DNA from: a virus | Reading direction: 5' to 3' (one strand) | Length of the DNA: 37,189 nt | IMG/VR virus record: IMGVR_UViG_3300009161_000012 | Coordinates: 1-37,189 of that record | Shown: one piece after another, positions 2,313-10,623 of the stretch | Numbering within the stretch: the first letter of the stretch is position 1 | How the letters are laid out: each line of letters begins with the position of its first letter | Translations under genes and position numbers: made by a program | Notes under the pieces: model-generated | Database searches by the model: none | What the model saw: only the letters and a program-made list of their open reading frames with translations | Told to the model about the DNA's origin: nothing

Positions 2313-2830
2313 TCCTTTATTTCGGTTACTACCGCCTCAATAGACGACGCCTTCATGTTAGCCCTAGCCTGCTCAATAGCCTTCATGGCATCCTCCAAAC
2401 TCGGGGCACTCGTCTTATGCTCAACCACAACCCTGTTCTCTCCCATAGCCGATAGGAACTTATCATTAGCTATTCCCCAAGGAAGTGTAAGGTCTCGTAT
2501 GTTAGTCCTAGCCAATTGCTCTGGGTCTTCCGCTAGCATCCGCATCTTCTCCTTCTGCAAAAGCCGCAAGCCTTCTACAATGTCTAGGGCATCCTCTGCC
2601 AGCGAGGCCCTACGTTCATTCAAAGCCATCTTATGCCGCGCCTTCAGCCGCGCCACAGTTTCCCACTTCATTCCCAGCTTCTTATTAATGCTATTAAAAC
2701 TCTCCCCTTCGGCCAACATCTCTAGTGCCTTAATTGCCAACGCCGGATCACGCCTCTCAATGAAGTTACCAACATTGTTTGCATTTGCGGCTACTGACTT
2801 AGATAGATCACTAATCTTCCTCTTAGGCAT
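2309..2830 (-). CDS. terS: Terminase small subunit
   Basis: This 173-residue protein is the first gene of the late minus-strand block and overlaps terL by 4 bp. Small terminases recognise the packaging site and feed DNA to the large subunit. Residues about 26-70 fit a helix-turn-helix: the segment around SFNSINKKLGMKWETVARLK looks like the two helices. A long helical, charged stretch follows (about 71-115), as expected for the oligomerisation region. The identification rests on the fold pattern and on its position directly before terL; family assignment by search would settle it. No clear SD precedes the ATG. Confidence 0.8.
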   Translation of the reverse strand: MPKRKISDLSKSVAANANNVGNFIERRDPALAIKALEMLAEGESFNSINKKLGMKWETVARLKARHKMALNERRASLAEDALDIVEGLRLLQKEKMRMLAEDPEQLARTNIRDLTLPWGIANDKFLSAMGENRVVVEHKTSAPSLEDAMKAIEQARANMKASSIEAVVTEIKE

Positions 2831-2867
2831 ACCCCATCTATTTCATATTCCCCTAGATATGCAAGCA

Positions 2868-2889
2868 GTTTGTTAGTAATAAAACAAAC
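2868..2889. promoter_or_regulatory. Inverted repeat upstream of the late operon
   Basis: GTTTGTT (2868-2874) is exactly inverted as AACAAAC (2883-2889), with an 8-nt spacer. It lies about 40 bp upstream of the small terminase start. It could be an operator for late transcription or a short hairpin in the leader. It is short and in AT-rich sequence, so chance occurrence is possible. Confidence 0.3.
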
Positions 2890-3163
2890 CACCTATCTCT
2901 ATGAACATAACTACATTACAACTATCTCAAATTAATCCACAACCTTTACACCCTTTCTCCCGTCCTTTACAGCAACTTACGTCGCAACTGTGTTGACGCG
3001 ACCTTTGTTTAATCCTCTATCCGCGTAAACTAGACCTTACGCCAAGGACAGCGGCTATGGCGAGTAGGGCCAAACATCTGTGATTTTTTTAAAATGGCTT
3101 ATGGATCAATTTCAATCTGTCCGCCCACCCCCCCTAACGTACCCCCTCCCCCCTATATAGCTA

Positions 3164-3262
3164 TATAGTATACTAAATTAGTATAGTATATAGTTGTATA
3201 GTATACTAAATCAATATAGTATATAACTGTATAGTATAGTAAAGTAGTATAGTATATTGCTA
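3164..3262. repeat. Three 33-bp AT-rich tandem repeats (iteron-like)
   Basis: Units start at 3164, 3197 and 3230, each beginning TATAGTATA and built from interleaved TATAC/GTATA and TAGTAT/ATACTA inverted repeats. Copies 1 and 2 are close matches; copy 3 is more diverged. The 33-bp period is about three helical turns, so bound proteins would sit on one face of the DNA. The composition suits a DNA-unwinding element, an initiator-binding array or a multi-copy operator. Position in the divergent region supports a control role. Confidence 0.8.
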
Positions 3263-3478
3263 TACTTAGCTAGGGCGTGTGCGTGGTGTGTTAAGGGGAG
3301 ATAAGGGATTGCCAACGCCGACAGACCGTCCTGACATTAGTCTTTCTTCACTCCCGTTTGCCGCCTATTAGGACGTCTAATGCCTTAAAATAAAGCTTTA
3401 AACCTTTGGTCAAATCTGGTAAACGTGTGGGCAGGGAAGCGACAAACGTAACCCACAACGAAAGAGACAAAGAAACAA

Positions 3479-4351
3479 ATGAAAAGAAACGAATGTTTAG
3501 AAATTGTCAGAAACATAGAAAACCTTGAATCGATCAAGTTGAGTTTGAAAAGCGTTTCAAGGGGTTATCTATTAAGGGGTTCGTGGGCATATTACGCCGC
3601 AAAGCTTTTGGCATGGATTGAATCCGGCATGGATGGAAAACCTCCGTTTTCCGTCATAGTTGCCAACGGAAACAGGAAATTGCCTTTCTTTGCGTTTTCC
3701 TCTCTCGCGATTGCCGATTGTCCCGGCAAAGGCGAATGCGCCAAGTATTGTTATTCGCTAAAAGCGTGGCGATATCCGGCTGCTTTTTTTCGGCCACTTC
3801 AAAACAGTCTTTTGATGCGTCATAGGCCGCAAGCAATTGCTTGCGCATGGAATCTAATACCAGAGGGGAAAACGGTTCGCTTATTCGTGGATGGCGATTT
3901 TCCGAATGTTGAAACGCTTAGATTTTTTATGGAACTTTGCAAGAGCCGTCCCGACTTGTCCGTTTACGGCTATTCGAAATCGTGGGCAGAATTCGTCTCA
4001 CTTGATCAAGGTGGTTTCGTTTGGCCTTCAAACTACCTTGTAAACAAGTCTAACGGATCGCGTTGGGTGAACACCGGGATTGCAAATGCGTTTTCGGCTT
4101 TGCCAATTGTCAGAGGTGAATTTGATGCTGTCCCGGTGGATAAAAGCTTTATCAAGTCGAAGGCGTACCAGTCGAAAGAAAACGAAGGTTCCGGCGAATA
4201 TCGGAAAACGGTTCGCGAGAAATTGAAGGCAATTTACAATCGCGTCTTTGCTTGTCCCGGCAATTGCGGCAATTGTCTCCCGGGAGGACGGCATGCTTGC
4301 GGTTCAAAAGACTTTGCCGGAATTGCAATTGGCATTGGAATTCACGCCTGA
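3479..4351 (+). CDS. gp88-like cysteine-rich phage/plasmid protein
   Basis: This 290-residue protein is the first gene of the early block. It shows a pattern I associate with the phage gene product 88 family: CPGKGECAKYCYSLKA at 81-96 (Cys81, 87, 91), then Arg/Asn-rich residues, a VDGD turn at 137-140 followed by a helical segment and YGYSKS at 163-168, and a C-terminal cysteine cluster (C259, C263, C266, C274) ending in IGIHA. The Cys arrangement implies a metal or Fe-S site; the biochemical role of the family is not established to my knowledge. The start follows an A-rich leader without an SD. Its place beside the repeat array hints at an early function. Confidence 0.7.
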   Translation: MKRNECLEIVRNIENLESIKLSLKSVSRGYLLRGSWAYYAAKLLAWIESGMDGKPPFSVIVANGNRKLPFFAFSSLAIADCPGKGECAKYCYSLKAWRYPAAFFRPLQNSLLMRHRPQAIACAWNLIPEGKTVRLFVDGDFPNVETLRFFMELCKSRPDLSVYGYSKSWAEFVSLDQGGFVWPSNYLVNKSNGSRWVNTGIANAFSALPIVRGEFDAVPVDKSFIKSKAYQSKENEGSGEYRKTVREKLKAIYNRVFACPGNCGNCLPGGRHACGSKDFAGIAIGIGIHA

Positions 4352-4472: not shown

Positions 4473-4503
4473 AAGGCCACGCCTTCAATGGCGTGGCCTT
4501 TTT
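4473..4503 (+). terminator. Rho-independent terminator after the gp88-like operon
   Basis: An 11-bp perfect stem, AAGGCCACGCC (4473-4483) with GGCGTGGCCTT (4490-4500), has a 6-nt loop and is followed by a T run to 4503. It lies 19 bp after the stop of the membrane micropeptide. The flanking A run also allows some function on the minus strand. Confidence 0.8.
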
Positions 4504-4668
4504 CGTGGCCTTCGTTGGCCCTTCGTTGGCCTTTGCTTGGCCCGTCCTTCGCCCGTCCTTGGCCTTTCCTTGGCCCTTCGTGGCCCGTCCTTGGCCCTAG
4601 GCACCTTGCGCCATCCCTTGCGCCATCCCTTGCGCCATCTTTGGCCGCTACCTTGGCCGCCAATGGCG
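4504..4668. repeat. GGCC-rich low-complexity repeat block
   Basis: This stretch is built from short imperfect repeats of TTGGCC/CCTTCG-type words, with GGCC occurring roughly every 10-20 bp, and ends with three exact 12-bp tandem units CCTTGCGCCATC (4604-4639). Long frames are open on both strands, but they translate to low-complexity Gly/Arg/Lys or Trp/Pro/Leu repeats and have no coupled start, so I do not call genes. It directly follows a terminator and precedes the CTTAAG array, so it is more likely a structural or regulatory DNA element. Confidence 0.7.
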
Positions 4669-4676
4669 GAAACCCT

Positions 4677-4799
4677 CTTAAGGGGCTAATCCCGACAAAG
4701 CCCCTTAAGAGGCTAATCCAATACAATCGCCTTAAGAGAGGAATCCGCCTTAAGGGATGAATCCCCTTAAGAGATGAATTCCCTTAAGAGCGCAATCCC
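4677..4799. repeat. Six-copy CTTAAG iterated array upstream of the DUF932 operon
   Basis: CTTAAG occurs at 4677, 4704, 4731, 4749, 4766 and 4783, giving spacings of 27, 27, 18, 17 and 17 bp. Each palindrome is followed by a related tail of roughly RRGVNBAATCC, so the unit is a directional direct repeat of about 17-19 bp. A further copy, matching the last unit at 17 of 19 positions, lies at 6083-6101 after the DUF932 gene. The array sits just upstream of a promoter-like sequence. This is what a cooperative operator or initiator-binding array would look like. Confidence 0.75.
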
Positions 4800-4834: not shown

Positions 4835-4915
4835 AAAGCTTGGCTTTTAATCTGGATGGCTTATGGTTTTGGCAATCCCAACAAGGGAGCACAGAAACAG
4901 ACAGGAAATCAAAAC

Positions 4916-5133: not shown

Positions 5134-6081
5134 ATGAGTCACGAAATCGAAATCAACGACACGGTTATCTACGGCAGCAACACACCCGCTTGGCACGGCC
5201 TCGGGACGGTGTTTGCTGGCCTTTTAAGCCCTTTGCGCGTCTTTGCTGAGGGAGTCGGTCACAGAGACATCCTTGAGGTTCCCGTGCACCTTAACGGGCT
5301 TGTCTTGCCAAACCAAAAGGGCTTGGTGGGGATCACGTCTAAGGGCGTGCAGGTGCCGCTTTCAGTGGTGGGCGAAGGTTATGGCGTGCTTAAAAGTGAA
5401 TCCATGTATCGCATCCTTGAGGGCGTCTACGCCGGGCAAGCGGTGGTAGATGCAGCCGGAACCCTTCGCAACGGTGCTCGCGAGTGGTGCCTAGTCAAAC
5501 GATCTGCATGGTCGGTCAAAAAAGACGACGTTGTTTTGACGTATGACCTCTGGCTTAATCGCCACGATGGAAGCGGGTGTTTTGAGCTTCACCGCACCAA
5601 CATTCGGGTGGTCTGCGCGAACACTTGGAAGATGGCCGTCTCTGGTGGCAATCGCGTGTTTGGGGTGCGTCACACGAAAAACGTGGAGCAGGGCGTGCAA
5701 TCGGCGTTGCAAGTGCTCGGATATGTCGAAGCGCAAGAGCAGACGCAGCGTGCAGCCGCGCAGCGTATGGCGACGGCTTTTATGAGCCGTGCAGAGGCCG
5801 CGACGGCGTTTAACGTGCTTCTTGGCATCCGGGAGGGCGTGGAGTCTTCCACCCGTGCAGAGAATCAGTCGGCGGAACTTAATCGCCTATTCCTCACTGG
5901 CGCGGGCAATCAAGGGCTGACGCGCTGGGACGCTTTTAACGCCGTCACCGAGTACGTTGATCACGGGCGTTCAACTCGCGTTGCGGATGGTCGCAGCGGG
6001 GCGGAAGTGCGGTTTGAGAGCGTGCTTATGGGTTCTGGCGATGCCATGAAGGCCAAGGCGTTTGACCTCCTGAGCGTGTAA
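5134..6081 (+). CDS. DUF932 family phage/plasmid-like protein
   Basis: This 315-residue protein matches the DUF932 (phage/plasmid-like TIGR03299) pattern: an N-terminal segment with PAWHGLGT (residues 18-25), a central VGEGYGVLK (78-86), then LTYDLWLNRHDGSG and TNIRVVCANTW around 133-165, and a helical C-terminal half. Length is normal for the family, whose molecular function is unknown; members sit in phage and plasmid early regions. Codon use is GC-richer than the flanking small genes. A strong terminator follows at 6098, so the gene ends its transcript. CTTAAG repeats flank the operon on both sides. Confidence 0.85.
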   Translation: MSHEIEINDTVIYGSNTPAWHGLGTVFAGLLSPLRVFAEGVGHRDILEVPVHLNGLVLPNQKGLVGITSKGVQVPLSVVGEGYGVLKSESMYRILEGVYAGQAVVDAAGTLRNGAREWCLVKRSAWSVKKDDVVLTYDLWLNRHDGSGCFELHRTNIRVVCANTWKMAVSGGNRVFGVRHTKNVEQGVQSALQVLGYVEAQEQTQRAAAQRMATAFMSRAEAATAFNVLLGIREGVESSTRAENQSAELNRLFLTGAGNQGLTRWDAFNAVTEYVDHGRSTRVADGRSGAEVRFESVLMGSGDAMKAKAFDLLSV

Positions 6082-6097
6082 ACCCTTAAGAGCGTAG

Positions 6098-6127
6098 TCC
6101 CTCTCCGTAAATGGAGGGGGATTTTTT
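6098..6127 (+). terminator. Rho-independent terminator after the DUF932 gene
   Basis: A 9-bp stem, TCCCTCTCC (6098-6106) with GGAGGGGGA (6113-6121), contains one G-T pair, has a 6-nt loop and is followed by TTTTTT. It begins 16 bp after the DUF932 stop. Confidence 0.85.
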
Positions 6128-6148: not shown

Positions 6149-6367
6149 CTATTCATTCCAAATTACGATGGTCGTGGGGTTGATGCGGGTAACAGAGAAT
6201 GGCCTGACGGGAATTTCGGGCATAATTGCCGTTGGAAACACCCTGATGACCTGAGTTTTCACTGGAGATGGCCGTTCCTCCTCAATTACGTTGCCAAACA
6301 GGTCTAGGGATGGCCCTTTGCGGGCTGTTCCTTGCGTTTTTCGGGCACTCTGATTGGGTTTGGCCAT
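6149..6367 (-). CDS. Small hypothetical protein on the opposite strand
   Basis: This 72-residue frame is the only candidate minus-strand gene inside the early plus-strand block. I start it at the ATG at 6365-6367; a TTG 12 bp upstream is possible. The N-terminus is basic and polar, followed by SLDLFGNVIEEE (about 24-35), a motif often seen in small phage proteins, and a Pro/Val/Ile-rich C-terminal half. No SD is visible. It is bracketed by two terminators and by direct repeats (6070, 6596), which suggests a separately transcribed inserted cassette. It could still be a chance frame. Confidence 0.45.
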   Translation of the reverse strand: MAKPNQSARKTQGTARKGPSLDLFGNVIEEERPSPVKTQVIRVFPTAIMPEIPVRPFSVTRINPTTIVIWNE

Positions 6368-6516
6368 AGGGAGCCGCAAAGGAGCGGAATGCGGCTTAAT
6401 CCGTCAATGGGGAATTTCCCCGCTTGCATAACTGAGCGTGTTATTATTCTTTCCTGTTAGTTGCGGGTAGAGCCGCCACAAAAGTTCAATTTGGGCTGGA
6501 AATTTCTGGCCGAAAA

Positions 6517-6562
6517 GAAGACCGGACGTGCTGCTCTACCAGCCTCCGGTCTTCTGCTTTTT
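6517..6562 (+). terminator. Terminator-like hairpin
   Basis: GAAGACCGGA (6517-6526) is perfectly inverted as TCCGGTCTTC (6545-6554). The 18-nt interior can itself form a small GCTG/CAGC hairpin. Five T residues follow at 6558-6562. No known plus-strand gene ends just upstream, so it may end a noncoding transcript or form part of a larger RNA. Confidence 0.6.
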
Positions 6563-6597
6563 CTTAGTTCTCGCGAAGACTGGAGTTCATAGGAACT

Positions 6598-6836
6598 GAG
6601 CGTGTAACCCACAGCATCCGCATATGGCGGTCTGATATTGGGTGAAGGTGCGGTCCCCGAGGCTAACAGGCGAGAGCCTGAATCGTAGGGGTATCAAAGT
6701 GACGCGAAAGCGTGATTCACCGACAGGCTACGAGAAACAGCCAAGGGTAGGAGGCACAAGCCGCAACCCGAGGTCGGAAAAGCGAACGCGAAAACTGCTT
6801 TATGCGCTGCTTAACAATCCCTGATGGCAGGGATTT
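6598..6836 (+). ncRNA. Candidate structured noncoding RNA, unidentified
   Basis: Successive complementary pairs suggest an ordered fold. ACCCA/TGGGT (6607-6611/6639-6643) encloses CCGC/GCGG (6618-6621/6627-6630). CCCC/GGGG (6655-6658/6688-6691) encloses CAGGC-GAGA-GCCTG (6667-6680). ACGC-GAAA-GCGT lies at 6702-6713, inside GTGA/TCAC. GGCT/AGCC pairs 6726-6729/6739-6742. GGGT/ACCC (6745-6748/6766-6769) encloses GGC/GCC. The last hairpin is AATCCCTG-ATGG-CAGGGATT (6816-6835). Two loops are GNRA tetraloops. Short stretches (GAAACAGCC, GGAAAAGCGAA) resemble group II intron domain I, but there is no intron ORF and no domain V that I can see. Strand is inferred from neighbouring genes. Confidence 0.5.
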
Positions 6837-6966
6837 CTGCGTCCACTCGCCTACTTTATGCGACTACTCAACGCATCCATCCGCAATGGATCGAAAAATC
6901 CCTTAATCACGAAGTGAAAACCACTAAAAACTAAGGCCAATGAGAGAAAACTGATTGCCGCAAATA

Positions 6967-8878: not shown

Positions 8879-9200
8879 GTGCCGTCTTTTGGATGGGCTT
8901 CTCTGCTGGGCTCGCGTTCTTGGTCGTGGTTCTTAGCGCCTTTGTGGCTCTCTCAAAGCGCATGAGCGCCGAGAACCGCAAGGCGCACGAGTCTACGACG
9001 GGACTGCTTGAAGATGCGAATTATAACCGCGACCGCATCGCCAATCAGCTTTCCCGCATTGCAAACGAGCTTGAGCAGCAAGGAGCCCGCAAATGAGCGC
9101 ACCCACACCCACACCCACACCTCGCACCGAAATCACGTTCACCGGAACCTACACCTGCACGCACCACAACGACCAGCAGCGGGCTGCGTGCCCAGTGTGC
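8243..9200. repeat. Duplicated segment encoding the PTPRT/zinc-like module
   Basis: Bases 8243-8335 (inside the coiled-coil gene) and 9113-9200 (most of the 49-codon gene at 9093) are near-identical apart from a 6-base difference and scattered substitutions. Both encode PTPRT, then EITFTG, then CTHHNDQQRA and CPVC. A third, partial copy of the CACCCA-rich leader lies at about 9505-9538. The copies are direct and about 870 bp apart. Confidence 0.8.
8875..9096 (+). CDS. Membrane-anchored small protein with coiled-coil tail
   Basis: This 73-residue protein has an N-terminal hydrophobic helix (about residues 5-27, FWMGFSAGLAFLVVVLSAFV), then KR as a positive-inside signal, then a helical polar tail with heptad-like spacing (about 30-70). 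The predicted topology is one span with a cytoplasmic C-terminal tail. It is coupled on both sides by ATGA overlaps. It could be a small membrane accessory or a spanin-like protein, but it lacks a lipobox and lies far from the holin-like genes. Confidence 0.65.
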   Translation: MSAVFWMGFSAGLAFLVVVLSAFVALSKRMSAENRKAHESTTGLLEDANYNRDRIANQLSRIANELEQQGARK

Positions 9201-9242
9201 CTCATCACCGCCCTCACCGCCGCGCGTTTCACAACTGGTTAA
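9093..9242 (+). CDS. Short Cys/His-motif protein, partial paralogue of the 8066 gene
   Basis: This 49-residue frame starts MSAPTPTPTPRT at an ATGA overlap with the previous gene and carries CTHHNDQQRA and CPVC, almost the same as residues 60-91 of the 8066 protein. It then ends after a short unrelated tail. The two Cys-containing motifs could bind one zinc ion. It may be a functional mini-protein or a truncated duplicate whose coiled-coil part has been lost. The repeated CACCCA units at its start are prone to slippage. Confidence 0.55.
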   Translation: MSAPTPTPTPRTEITFTGTYTCTHHNDQQRAACPVCLITALTAARFTTG

Positions 9243-9255
9243 CAAAAGAATAAAT

Positions 9256-10008
9256 ATGTTCCAATACACACAAAAATGGGAAGACCAACTGGTTTACCCC
9301 GCCGATACAATGTACGAGATTGATCAAGTAAAATTGGTCAAATGGCTAAAGCATCTACGCGATCTAAATCATCTGTTAATGAATGATTTGATGCGTCATG
9401 GCCGTGAAAGAGAAAATGCCAGAGGAGCATTTAATGCATATGATTGCTTGCTTGGAGACATCAGGCGTGGAACAATCTTTATGAAAGAAGGACGCGCAAT
9501 GAGCACACCCACACCCACACCAACACCTCGCACCGACTACGCTTGGGCGCAAACCTTCGACGCAAATACATTTCTTTCAGGCAGAGGTAACGCTGCCAAC
9601 CAAATGCGCGACGAGTGCGCGACGCTTGAACGCGAACTCACCGCCCTCACCGCCGAGCGCGACCGTAATGTGAGCCATAGACTAGAGCGCGAAAAGGCCG
9701 AGGCAGAGCGGACCGATGCGATTTATCAGCGGGTGTGCGAGGTCGAGCGCGAACTTCGCGCCGAGAACGCCACCCTCCGCGCCGCACAAAAAGCCTGTGA
9801 GGCGTGCGACGAGCCAACGGCATTTGAGGTGCGGCAGCTCCGCGCCGAACTCGCCACCGAGCGCGAGAAGGTGCGCGTGCTGCGGGAGGCGTTGGAGAAT
9901 TTGAGAGACGAGCAGAACGGTGCTCCGCTTTACACGCGAGAAGAAGAGTGGAAGCAGGCGATGGATAAAGCAGACGCAGCTCTCGCCGCAACGGAGGGCG
10001 CGAAATGA
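9256..10008 (+). CDS. Probable fusion: small N-terminal protein joined to a PTPRT coiled-coil protein
   Basis: The 250-residue frame begins MFQYTQKWED. Residues 1-81 look like an independent, AT-leaning, soluble small protein. Met82 then begins MSTPTPTPTPRT, the leader seen at the start of neighbouring genes, followed by a GC-rich coiled coil with repeated RAE/ERE patterns to residue 250. At neighbouring junctions the upstream gene ends by ATGA overlap; here the same ATGAG is read in frame, so the upstream stop is missed by one base. A GAAGGA motif lies upstream of the internal ATG at 9499, so a separate 169-residue product is possible. Confidence 0.65.
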   Translation: MFQYTQKWEDQLVYPADTMYEIDQVKLVKWLKHLRDLNHLLMNDLMRHGRERENARGAFNAYDCLLGDIRRGTIFMKEGRAMSTPTPTPTPRTDYAWAQTFDANTFLSGRGNAANQMRDECATLERELTALTAERDRNVSHRLEREKAEAERTDAIYQRVCEVERELRAENATLRAAQKACEACDEPTAFEVRQLRAELATEREKVRVLREALENLRDEQNGAPLYTREEEWKQAMDKADAALAATEGAK

Positions 10009-10205: not shown

Positions 10206-10346
10206 ATGATGAACACGATGAAAACAGATATTAAAGAAGCGTTGGATTGCATCAAAGAATTACTTGCTCGCTTTCCAGCCCCGACTTGCTCGGAGCAGGA
10301 ATTAGCAGTCGAAACCGCTAAGGAGATTCTATTGAAACATGATTGA
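10206..10346 (+). CDS. Small helical hypothetical protein
   Basis: This 46-residue frame begins at the ATG directly after the previous stop (no gap; the second codon is also ATG, and a third Met is at codon 5). It translates to a helical, acidic protein (DIKEALDCIKELLARF, then ELAVETAKEILLK). It fills what would otherwise be a 130-bp gap in a fully packed operon and overlaps the next gene by 8 bp, which supports translation. Function unknown. Confidence 0.5.
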   Translation: MMNTMKTDIKEALDCIKELLARFPAPTCSEQELAVETAKEILLKHD

Positions 10347-10623
10347 TATAACTGCCACAATGGAGTCGGTGAGGTTTATGTTCAACAAACATCTCAAGAA
10401 GATTGACCTATCGGTTCAAACTAAAATAAAGCCGGAAAAAGATTACGCATATAAACCAAGGGTGAGTGACGAGGTAGTGATTAAGGTTCGTAGCGAACTT
10501 CAGCGCGGAAAGACACTCATTCAAGCCGCCAAGGATCATGGTATATCCACGACCACGGCACACAAAATTAAGCACTATCACGGTTGCTTTGGAAGAGGGA
10601 TTTTAGCCAGACAAACAACATGA
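10339..10623 (+). CDS. Helix-turn-helix protein
   Basis: This 94-residue basic protein has a C-terminal helix-turn-helix like that of Hin-type resolvases. Residues about 41-82 read VSDEVVIKVRSEL, then GKTLIQAAKDHGIS, then TTTAHKIKHY, matching a recognition-helix arrangement. No catalytic resolvase domain is present, so it is more likely a transcription regulator or DNA-binding accessory. It lies immediately upstream of the ERF gene and is coupled to it by ATGA, so it may regulate or take part in the recombination module. Family certainty is moderate. Confidence 0.65.
   Translation: MIDITATMESVRFMFNKHLKKIDLSVQTKIKPEKDYAYKPRVSDEVVIKVRSELQRGKTLIQAAKDHGISTTTAHKIKHYHGCFGRGILARQTT

What the first reader, a model, noticed from the sequence alone, without database searches (positions are those of the whole stretch)
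4504..4799. Two-part repetitive control element: GGCC block plus CTTAAG array
Between a strong terminator and the DUF932 operon lie a GGCC-rich low-complexity block with three 12-bp tandem units, then six CTTAAG palindromes spaced 27, 27, 18, 17 and 17 bp with conserved tails. The near-helical spacing and common orientation suggest cooperative protein binding. I know of no standard phage element with this composition.
Basis: partly seen in the sequence, partly recalled or inferred. Interest (0 to 1): 0.6.

Follow-up and report, generated by a model that had tools for sequence, protein, structure and literature searches.

The report
Phage binding-site array, early region
A family of uncultured tailed phages carries, at one fixed place near its early genes, a row of repeated 16-letter DNA words in one orientation that looks like the landing strip of an unknown DNA-binding protein; the words are strongly conserved across relatives, but what they switch or start is not yet known.

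Summary
Relatives change its meaning. The CTTAAG palindrome is not the conserved feature: most relatives have CTTAAA. The conserved unit is asymmetric, CTTAA(A/G)(G/A)NNNNAATCC. It recurs 2-6 times at 17-19 or 27 bp, in one orientation, at one locus per genome. A survey seeded on the small terminase, not on the array, found it in 32 of 35 contigs with enough sequence. It is essentially absent from 84,980 prokaryote genomes.

Extra copies lie inside a downstream gene and encode LKxxS; there leucine is TTA in 79 of 81 cases, against about 5% genome-wide. This shows constraint on the nucleotides themselves. Neighbouring sites are not helically phased. The GGCC block is a lineage-specific tandem expansion carrying a word (CAAGSAAAGGC) found upstream of the array in many relatives.

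Best reading: a multi-site binding array for one sequence-specific protein, probably operators of the early region. An iteron-like replication origin is the main rival. Neither family's defining features are all met. The terminase and RNA readings are disfavoured.

Side finding: a probable new structured RNA at 6485-6960.

The parts
4475..4503 (+). Intrinsic terminator after the gp88-like gene (3479-4351), upstream border of the element
   Evidence: Direct reading: GGCCACGCC TTCAAT GGCGTGGCC TTTTT; gp88-like PF17338
4504..4672 (.). GGCC block: 11-bp tandem array 4509-4598 and 12-bp x3 array 4604-4639; copy number differs in relative L063 (12-mer 5 copies)
4529..4539 (-). Conserved word CAAGCAAAGGC inside the GGCC block; counterparts about 140-220 bp upstream of the array in many relatives, on the other strand
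4562..4572 (-). Conserved word CAAGGAAAGGC (second copy)
4659..4676 (+). Degenerate leading unit (window AATGGCGGAAACCCT; relatives TTANGTGGAAAACCGC), fits the 18-bp register of the array
   Evidence: 30 distinct arrays; AAAA at -8 to -5 nearly invariant
4677..4692 (+). Unit 1 CTTAAGGGGCTAATCC
4704..4719 (+). Unit 2 CTTAAGAGGCTAATCC
4731..4746 (+). Unit 3 CTTAAGAGAGGAATCC
4749..4764 (+). Unit 4 CTTAAGGGATGAATCC
4766..4781 (+). Unit 5 CTTAAGAGATGAATTC
4783..4798 (+). Unit 6 CTTAAGAGCGCAATCC
4840..4867 (+). Putative weak sigma-70-like promoter TTGGCT-16-TATGGT (TTGACT-16-TAAGGT in relatives), followed by a small leader hairpin CCC-AACAA-GGG at 4877-4887
   Evidence: Conserved in alignment; below the threshold of the consensus scan; inferred
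5134..6081 (+). DUF932 gene downstream of the array
   Evidence: PF06067 E 1.7e-39
6085..6100 (+). Outlying unit CTTAAGAGCGTAGTCC just after the DUF932 stop codon
6969..6991 (+). Outlying pair of CTTAAG, 17 bp apart, before ORF 7071; CTTAAG pair kept in L005 and L006
   Evidence: first one scores weakly, second has no AATCC half
10339..10623 (+). 94-aa helix-turn-helix protein, candidate DNA-binding partner (untested)
   Evidence: HTH_23 weak E 0.094; three-helix HTH, block pLDDT 82-88; Foldseek resolvase/IstA-type HTH, no significant hit

Best explanation
It is a phage-specific, directional tandem array of an asymmetric 16-bp DNA-binding site. Shown: two conserved blocks, CTTAAR and AATCC, with centres about 10 bp (one helical turn) apart, separated by a freely varying spacer; fixed genome position; one orientation; constraint at nucleotide level. 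Inferred: one sequence-specific protein reads both blocks in two successive major grooves on one face, and several copies load side by side. Inferred: the bound array works as an operator/roadblock-type control site of the early accessory-gene segment, with outlying sites at gene boundaries further down. The binding protein is not identified. The regulatory role is the weak step: geometry relative to promoters and start codons is not constant among relatives.
For: (1) Pattern scans: 28 then 40 viral contigs carry two adjacent units, against one isolated match in 84,980 genomes. (2) Terminase-seeded survey: 32 of 35 contigs with at least 3.2 kb on the early side have it. (3) One strand only: typically 7-9 forward against 0 reverse sites, reversed-pattern control 0-2; nearly all strong sites in one 1-2.3 kb zone of 24-39 kb records. 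(4) Discrete spacing 17, 18, 19, 27, 29. (5) Between window and L063, core 2/66 versus spacer 6/30 substitutions, Fisher P 0.011. (6) Units inside the lysozyme-like gene: Leu TTA 79/81, elsewhere in that gene 20/375, genomes 4-9%. (7) Units of a genome share the state of position 6: all G in window, L063 and G003; A in nearly all others, as expected if a trans-acting partner shifted. (8) Outlying sites at the DUF932 3' boundary, at the convergent lysozyme/minus-ORF boundary and before ORF 7071. (9) Orientation parallel to early transcription.
Against: No integrase or repressor was recognised among the proteins scanned, and no binder is proven. Array and promoter are uncoupled: L005, L006 and L036 keep the promoter and leader without an adjacent array, and in the lysozyme group the array abuts the start codon with no promoter seen in between. 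Three relatives lack a proper array, so it is not essential to the group. Shared position-6 state could also come from concerted evolution of tandem copies. Sequences are related, so counts are not independent.
Confidence: 0.42

Rival explanations
1. Iteron-type replication origin: an initiator binds the direct repeats and opens adjacent A+T-rich DNA; outlying copies act like plasmid control iterons.
For: Direct repeats in one orientation at a single locus, extra copies 0.2-2 kb away, position kept while the downstream gene changes. In the DUF932-type phages the 60 bp after the array are 65-72% A+T against 45-52% over the whole record. A structured RNA follows in the window and close relatives; RNA-based phage origins are known (PMC7157519).
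Against: Plasmid iterons are generally in helical phase (PMC5043065); these sites are offset by about 0.66 turn. The lysozyme-type phages have no A+T-rich stretch near the array (most A+T-rich 50 bp within 300 bp is 54-64%). No Rep-like initiator recognised in the window. GC-skew minimum lies in the terS-adjacent divergent region, not at the array, though gene orientation confounds it.
Confidence: 0.27
2. Packaging site: the small terminase binds the repeats (cosB/pac-like).
For: Array lies 1.7-3.4 kb from terS and occurs with this terS family in 32 of 35 contigs; L006, with a 49% TerS, lacks it.
Against: The TerS recognition helix (WETISRLKARH) is the same in array-lacking L142/L143 and array-bearing L139(L052)/L066 phages. 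Contig ends pile up within 500 bp upstream of terS (29 of 80; 5 of 80 on the other side), so a physical end, if any, is there and not at the array.
Confidence: 0.07
3. RNA-level element: the units work in a transcript as protein-binding or structural motifs.
For: In lysozyme-type phages the array sits just before the start codon and copies lie in coding sequence. The window array folds well as RNA (z -5.6).
Against: The strong fold depends on the CTTAAG palindromes and is weak in CTTAAA relatives (z -1.7 to -2.5). The 13-bp hairpin of units 1-2 is broken, not compensated, in L063 (alignment). In the window a terminator precedes and the putative promoter follows the array, so it may not be transcribed.
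Confidence: 0.1
4. Neutral or selfish tandem repeat that spreads by slippage, without function.
For: The neighbouring GGCC block does behave so: indels and 3 versus 5 copies in a close relative.
Against: Core conserved, spacer variable; TTA codon bias at dispersed units; same position across divergent phages; no spread elsewhere in the genome.
Confidence: 0.05

Closest known systems
Operators/stoperators of cluster A mycobacteriophages (L5, TipsytheTRex repressor; PMC9283540)
   Same: Asymmetric sites, orientation tied to transcription direction, several per genome, at promoters and gene boundaries; a monomeric two-domain reader can recognise such a site
   Different: Different sequence, 16 bp rather than 13, clustered as a tandem array in one 1-2.3 kb zone instead of spread over the genome, no recognised immunity repressor or integrase
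Iteron origins of plasmids and phage P1 / lambda ori (PMC5043065)
   Same: Array of direct repeats with outlying copies, A+T-rich DNA next to it in one phage subgroup
   Different: Not in helical phase, no Rep-like initiator found, no A+T-rich region in the other subgroup
cosB R sites / pac sites of terminases (from memory)
   Same: Repeated asymmetric sites on the terS side of the genome
   Different: 1.7-3.4 kb from terS across another gene and terminator; TerS recognition helix does not follow presence or absence of the array

Membership tests
Stoperator/operator system (cluster A mycobacteriophage type) | Asymmetric recognition site | tested here: met
   Unit CTTAARRNNNNAATCC is not palindromic in relatives
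Stoperator/operator system (cluster A mycobacteriophage type) | Site orientation follows transcription | tested here: met
   Clustered sites all on the early-transcribed strand
Stoperator/operator system (cluster A mycobacteriophage type) | More than twenty sites distributed throughout the genome | tested here: not met
   About 3-9 strong sites, confined to one 1-2.3 kb zone
Stoperator/operator system (cluster A mycobacteriophage type) | Phage-encoded repressor that binds the sites | not testable with these tools
   No repressor recognised; HTH protein 10339-10623 is only a candidate
Iteron replication origin | Array of direct repeats | tested here: met
Iteron replication origin | Repeats in phase with the helix | tested here: not met
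   Mean offset 0.66 turn at 10.5 bp
Iteron replication origin | Adjacent A+T-rich opening region | tested here: inconclusive
   Present in DUF932-type phages, absent in lysozyme-type phages
Iteron replication origin | Linked Rep/O-type initiator gene | tested here: inconclusive
   None recognised in the window; a DnaB helicase and a small HTH protein are present
Iteron replication origin | Replication starts there | not testable with these tools
   No read data
Terminase recognition site (cosB/pac) | Recognised by the phage's TerS | tested here: inconclusive
   Indirect only: recognition helix unchanged where the array is missing; binding itself not testable
Terminase recognition site (cosB/pac) | Next to the DNA ends | tested here: not met
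   Contig ends cluster next to terS, not at the array; contig ends are only a proxy
Rfam RNA families | Match to a described RNA family | tested here: not met
   No match at E<=1 in the window

The most novel reading that the evidence does not exclude
The array, the dispersed coding-embedded sites and the following structured RNA form one new kind of phage control or replication-start locus, in which a small HTH protein loads on out-of-phase sites and works together with the RNA.
Probability: 0.1. Interest if true: 0.72.

Novelty: new variant of a known kind. Interest (0 to 1): 0.45.

Why it matters
It gives a sequence-defined, positionally fixed cis element for a phage group known almost only from metagenomes. 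Sites embedded in coding sequence with a forced rare codon are a clean case of a DNA (or RNA) signal overriding codon choice. If the binding protein is found, it would show how these phages control early genes or start replication, and would make the motif a marker for finding the group's regulators and hosts.

Tried and rejected
CTTAAG palindrome as the unit: rejected, relatives have CTTAAA. Helical phasing: rejected. Host-chromosome element: rejected, one isolated Paenibacillus match in 84,980 genomes, judged a chance match from its lack of further units. GGCC as an avoided or decoy restriction word: rejected, 107 GGCC in the genome against 120 expected. RNA structure of the array: not supported. 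Small terminase as binder: weakened. The two HTH proteins near dnaB (o94 family, and a second family in lysozyme-type phages) as one homologous binder: profile comparison gave only 2% probability, both models show three-helix HTH regions, the second at low confidence, undecided. The nearest annotated phage by terminase, C75C1 (44% TerL), lacks the motif and has other repeats. Literature on CTTAAG phage repeats: nothing relevant. The host remains unknown.

Full report
WHAT IS THERE. The window is one whole IMG/VR virus record of 37,189 bases. The described features are all present: terminator at about 4475-4503, GGCC block with an 11-bp tandem array 4509-4598 and three exact 12-bp units 4604-4639, and six CTTAAG at 4677, 4704, 4731, 4749, 4766 and 4783. 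In 300 simulated genomes the largest cluster of CTTAAG in 112 bp was three, once.

THE UNIT. Relatives show that the unit is CTTAA(A/G)(G/A)NNNNAATCC, asymmetric, and that the sixth base is A in most phages. The two blocks are centred about one helical turn apart. Between the window and its closest array-bearing relative (L063) the blocks changed at 2 of 66 positions and the variable middle at 6 of 30 (Fisher P 0.011). Neighbouring units lie 17, 18, 19, 27 or 29 bp apart. That is a constant rotational offset of about two thirds of a turn and not helical phase. The base stretch just before the first unit, TTANGTGGAAAACCGC in relatives, looks like a degenerate further unit in the same register.

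HOW WIDESPREAD. A pattern of two adjacent units hits 28 (strict) or 40 (looser) viral contigs and one isolated place in 84,980 bacterial and archaeal genomes. To avoid circularity I searched by the small terminase instead. Of 35 contigs that reach at least 3.2 kb into the early side, 32 have the array and three (L137, L140, L142) do not, although L140 keeps a single unit. Three phages (L099, L102, L109) carry a third version of the unit in which the second half is often GACCC, and their copies are more scattered. L006, whose terminase is only about 49% identical, and the rearranged contig L005 lack the main array but keep the CTTAAG pair before ORF 7071.

WHERE IT SITS. The phages share late genes on one strand beginning with terS and terL, a divergent region, one or a few accessory genes (gp88-like, amidoligase-like), then the array, then early genes. 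The gene after the array differs: an 80-aa ORF in the window, DUF932, a PAPS-reductase-like gene or a small transglycosylase-like (lysozyme-like) gene. The lysozyme-like name rests on a weak match (PHROG E 0.13) and on reading the sequence. So the position is conserved rather than the downstream gene. The clustered sites lie on the early strand within one zone of 1-2.3 kb. Outlying sites lie after the DUF932 stop codon, inside the lysozyme-like gene, and before ORF 7071.

NUCLEOTIDE-LEVEL CONSTRAINT. Inside the lysozyme-like gene the units encode LKxxS. At those positions leucine is TTA in 79 of 81 cases. Elsewhere in the same genes it is TTA in 20 of 375, and in whole genomes 4-9%. The sequences are related, so this is not 81 independent events. 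It does show that the DNA or RNA word is kept and not just the peptide.

THE GGCC BLOCK. It is mostly unstable tandem repeat: L063 has five instead of three 12-mers and indels in the 11-mers. GGCC is not avoided elsewhere (107 seen, 120 expected). One word may matter: CAAGSAAAGGC occurs in the window only twice, both in this block (0.09 expected), and about once, 140-220 bp upstream of the array on the other strand, in many relatives.

MECHANISM. Best reading (0.42): a binding array for one sequence-specific protein, used as a control site of the early segment. The binding-site nature is well supported. The regulatory role is inference. In the DUF932-type phages a weak promoter-like sequence follows 29-57 bp after the start of the last unit (read by eye), but promoter and array also occur without each other. 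An iteron-like origin is the main rival (0.27): it fits the single locus, outlying copies and the A+T-rich flank in one subgroup, but fails on helical phase, and the other subgroup lacks the A+T-rich flank (criteria from PMC5043065). The terminase reading is weakened because the TerS recognition helix is the same with and without the array, and contig ends gather next to terS (29 of 80 within 500 bp, 5 of 80 on the other side). The RNA reading is weakened because the good fold in the window comes from the palindromes and is weak in relatives.

CANDIDATE PARTNER. The 94-aa protein at 10339-10623 has a three-helix HTH (block pLDDT 82-88) resembling resolvase/IstA-type HTH domains at insignificant E-values; a relative (L061) matches HTH and regulator PHROGs at 7e-6 to 1e-4. 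The lysozyme-type phages have a different small HTH-like protein at the corresponding place before dnaB. No link to the array was demonstrated.

COMPARISON. It works most like the asymmetric oriented operators/stoperators of cluster A mycobacteriophages (PMC9283540) or like iterons. It is not a member of either as tested: sites are not spread through the genome, and they are not in helical phase. Hence 'new variant of a known kind'.

LIMITS. All relatives are metagenomic contigs, the host is unknown, no expression or binding data exist, and counts come from related sequences.

Noticed in passing
window 6485-6960 (+): Long conserved non-coding stretch between DUF932 and ORF 7071. Four-sequence alignment (89% mean column identity) gives 144 predicted pairs, 14 with changes on both sides that keep the pair; no Rfam match at E<=1 and no tRNA/tmRNA. 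Probably one or two new structured RNAs.
   Followed up: partly
window 6149-6379 (-): Small minus-strand ORF convergent with DUF932, ending PFSVTRINPTTIVIWNE; similar C-terminal motif (PFxxxRxSPTE) read by eye in minus-strand ORFs at the same place in L034, L052, L061 and L140.
   Followed up: partly
window 2830-3479: Divergent region between terS and the gp88-like gene with a 33-bp tandem of TATAG-type palindromes (3154-3261); in relatives contig ends pile up within 500 bp upstream of terS, and the GC-skew minimum lies here. Possible DNA end or assembly break.
   Followed up: partly
L034 (G004), divergent region and upstream of the array: Many copies of a dyad ATTAG-N4/5-CTAAT in the intergenic regions; other relatives have TACGTA, CCTAGG or TATAGCTATA words in the same places. 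Each lineage seems to have its own palindromic word.
   Followed up: no
L005:3250-3302: A 10-bp tandem repeat CGCTTCGTTA x5.3 upstream of DUF932 where the window has the CTTAAG array.
   Followed up: no
G003 contig ends: The same tail gene cluster appears at both contig ends, so this relative is probably a complete circularly permuted 37.9-kb genome.
   Followed up: no
window 9033-9654: Several short tandem repeats (CACCCA, CACACC, CTCACCGCC) inside early ORFs.
   Followed up: no
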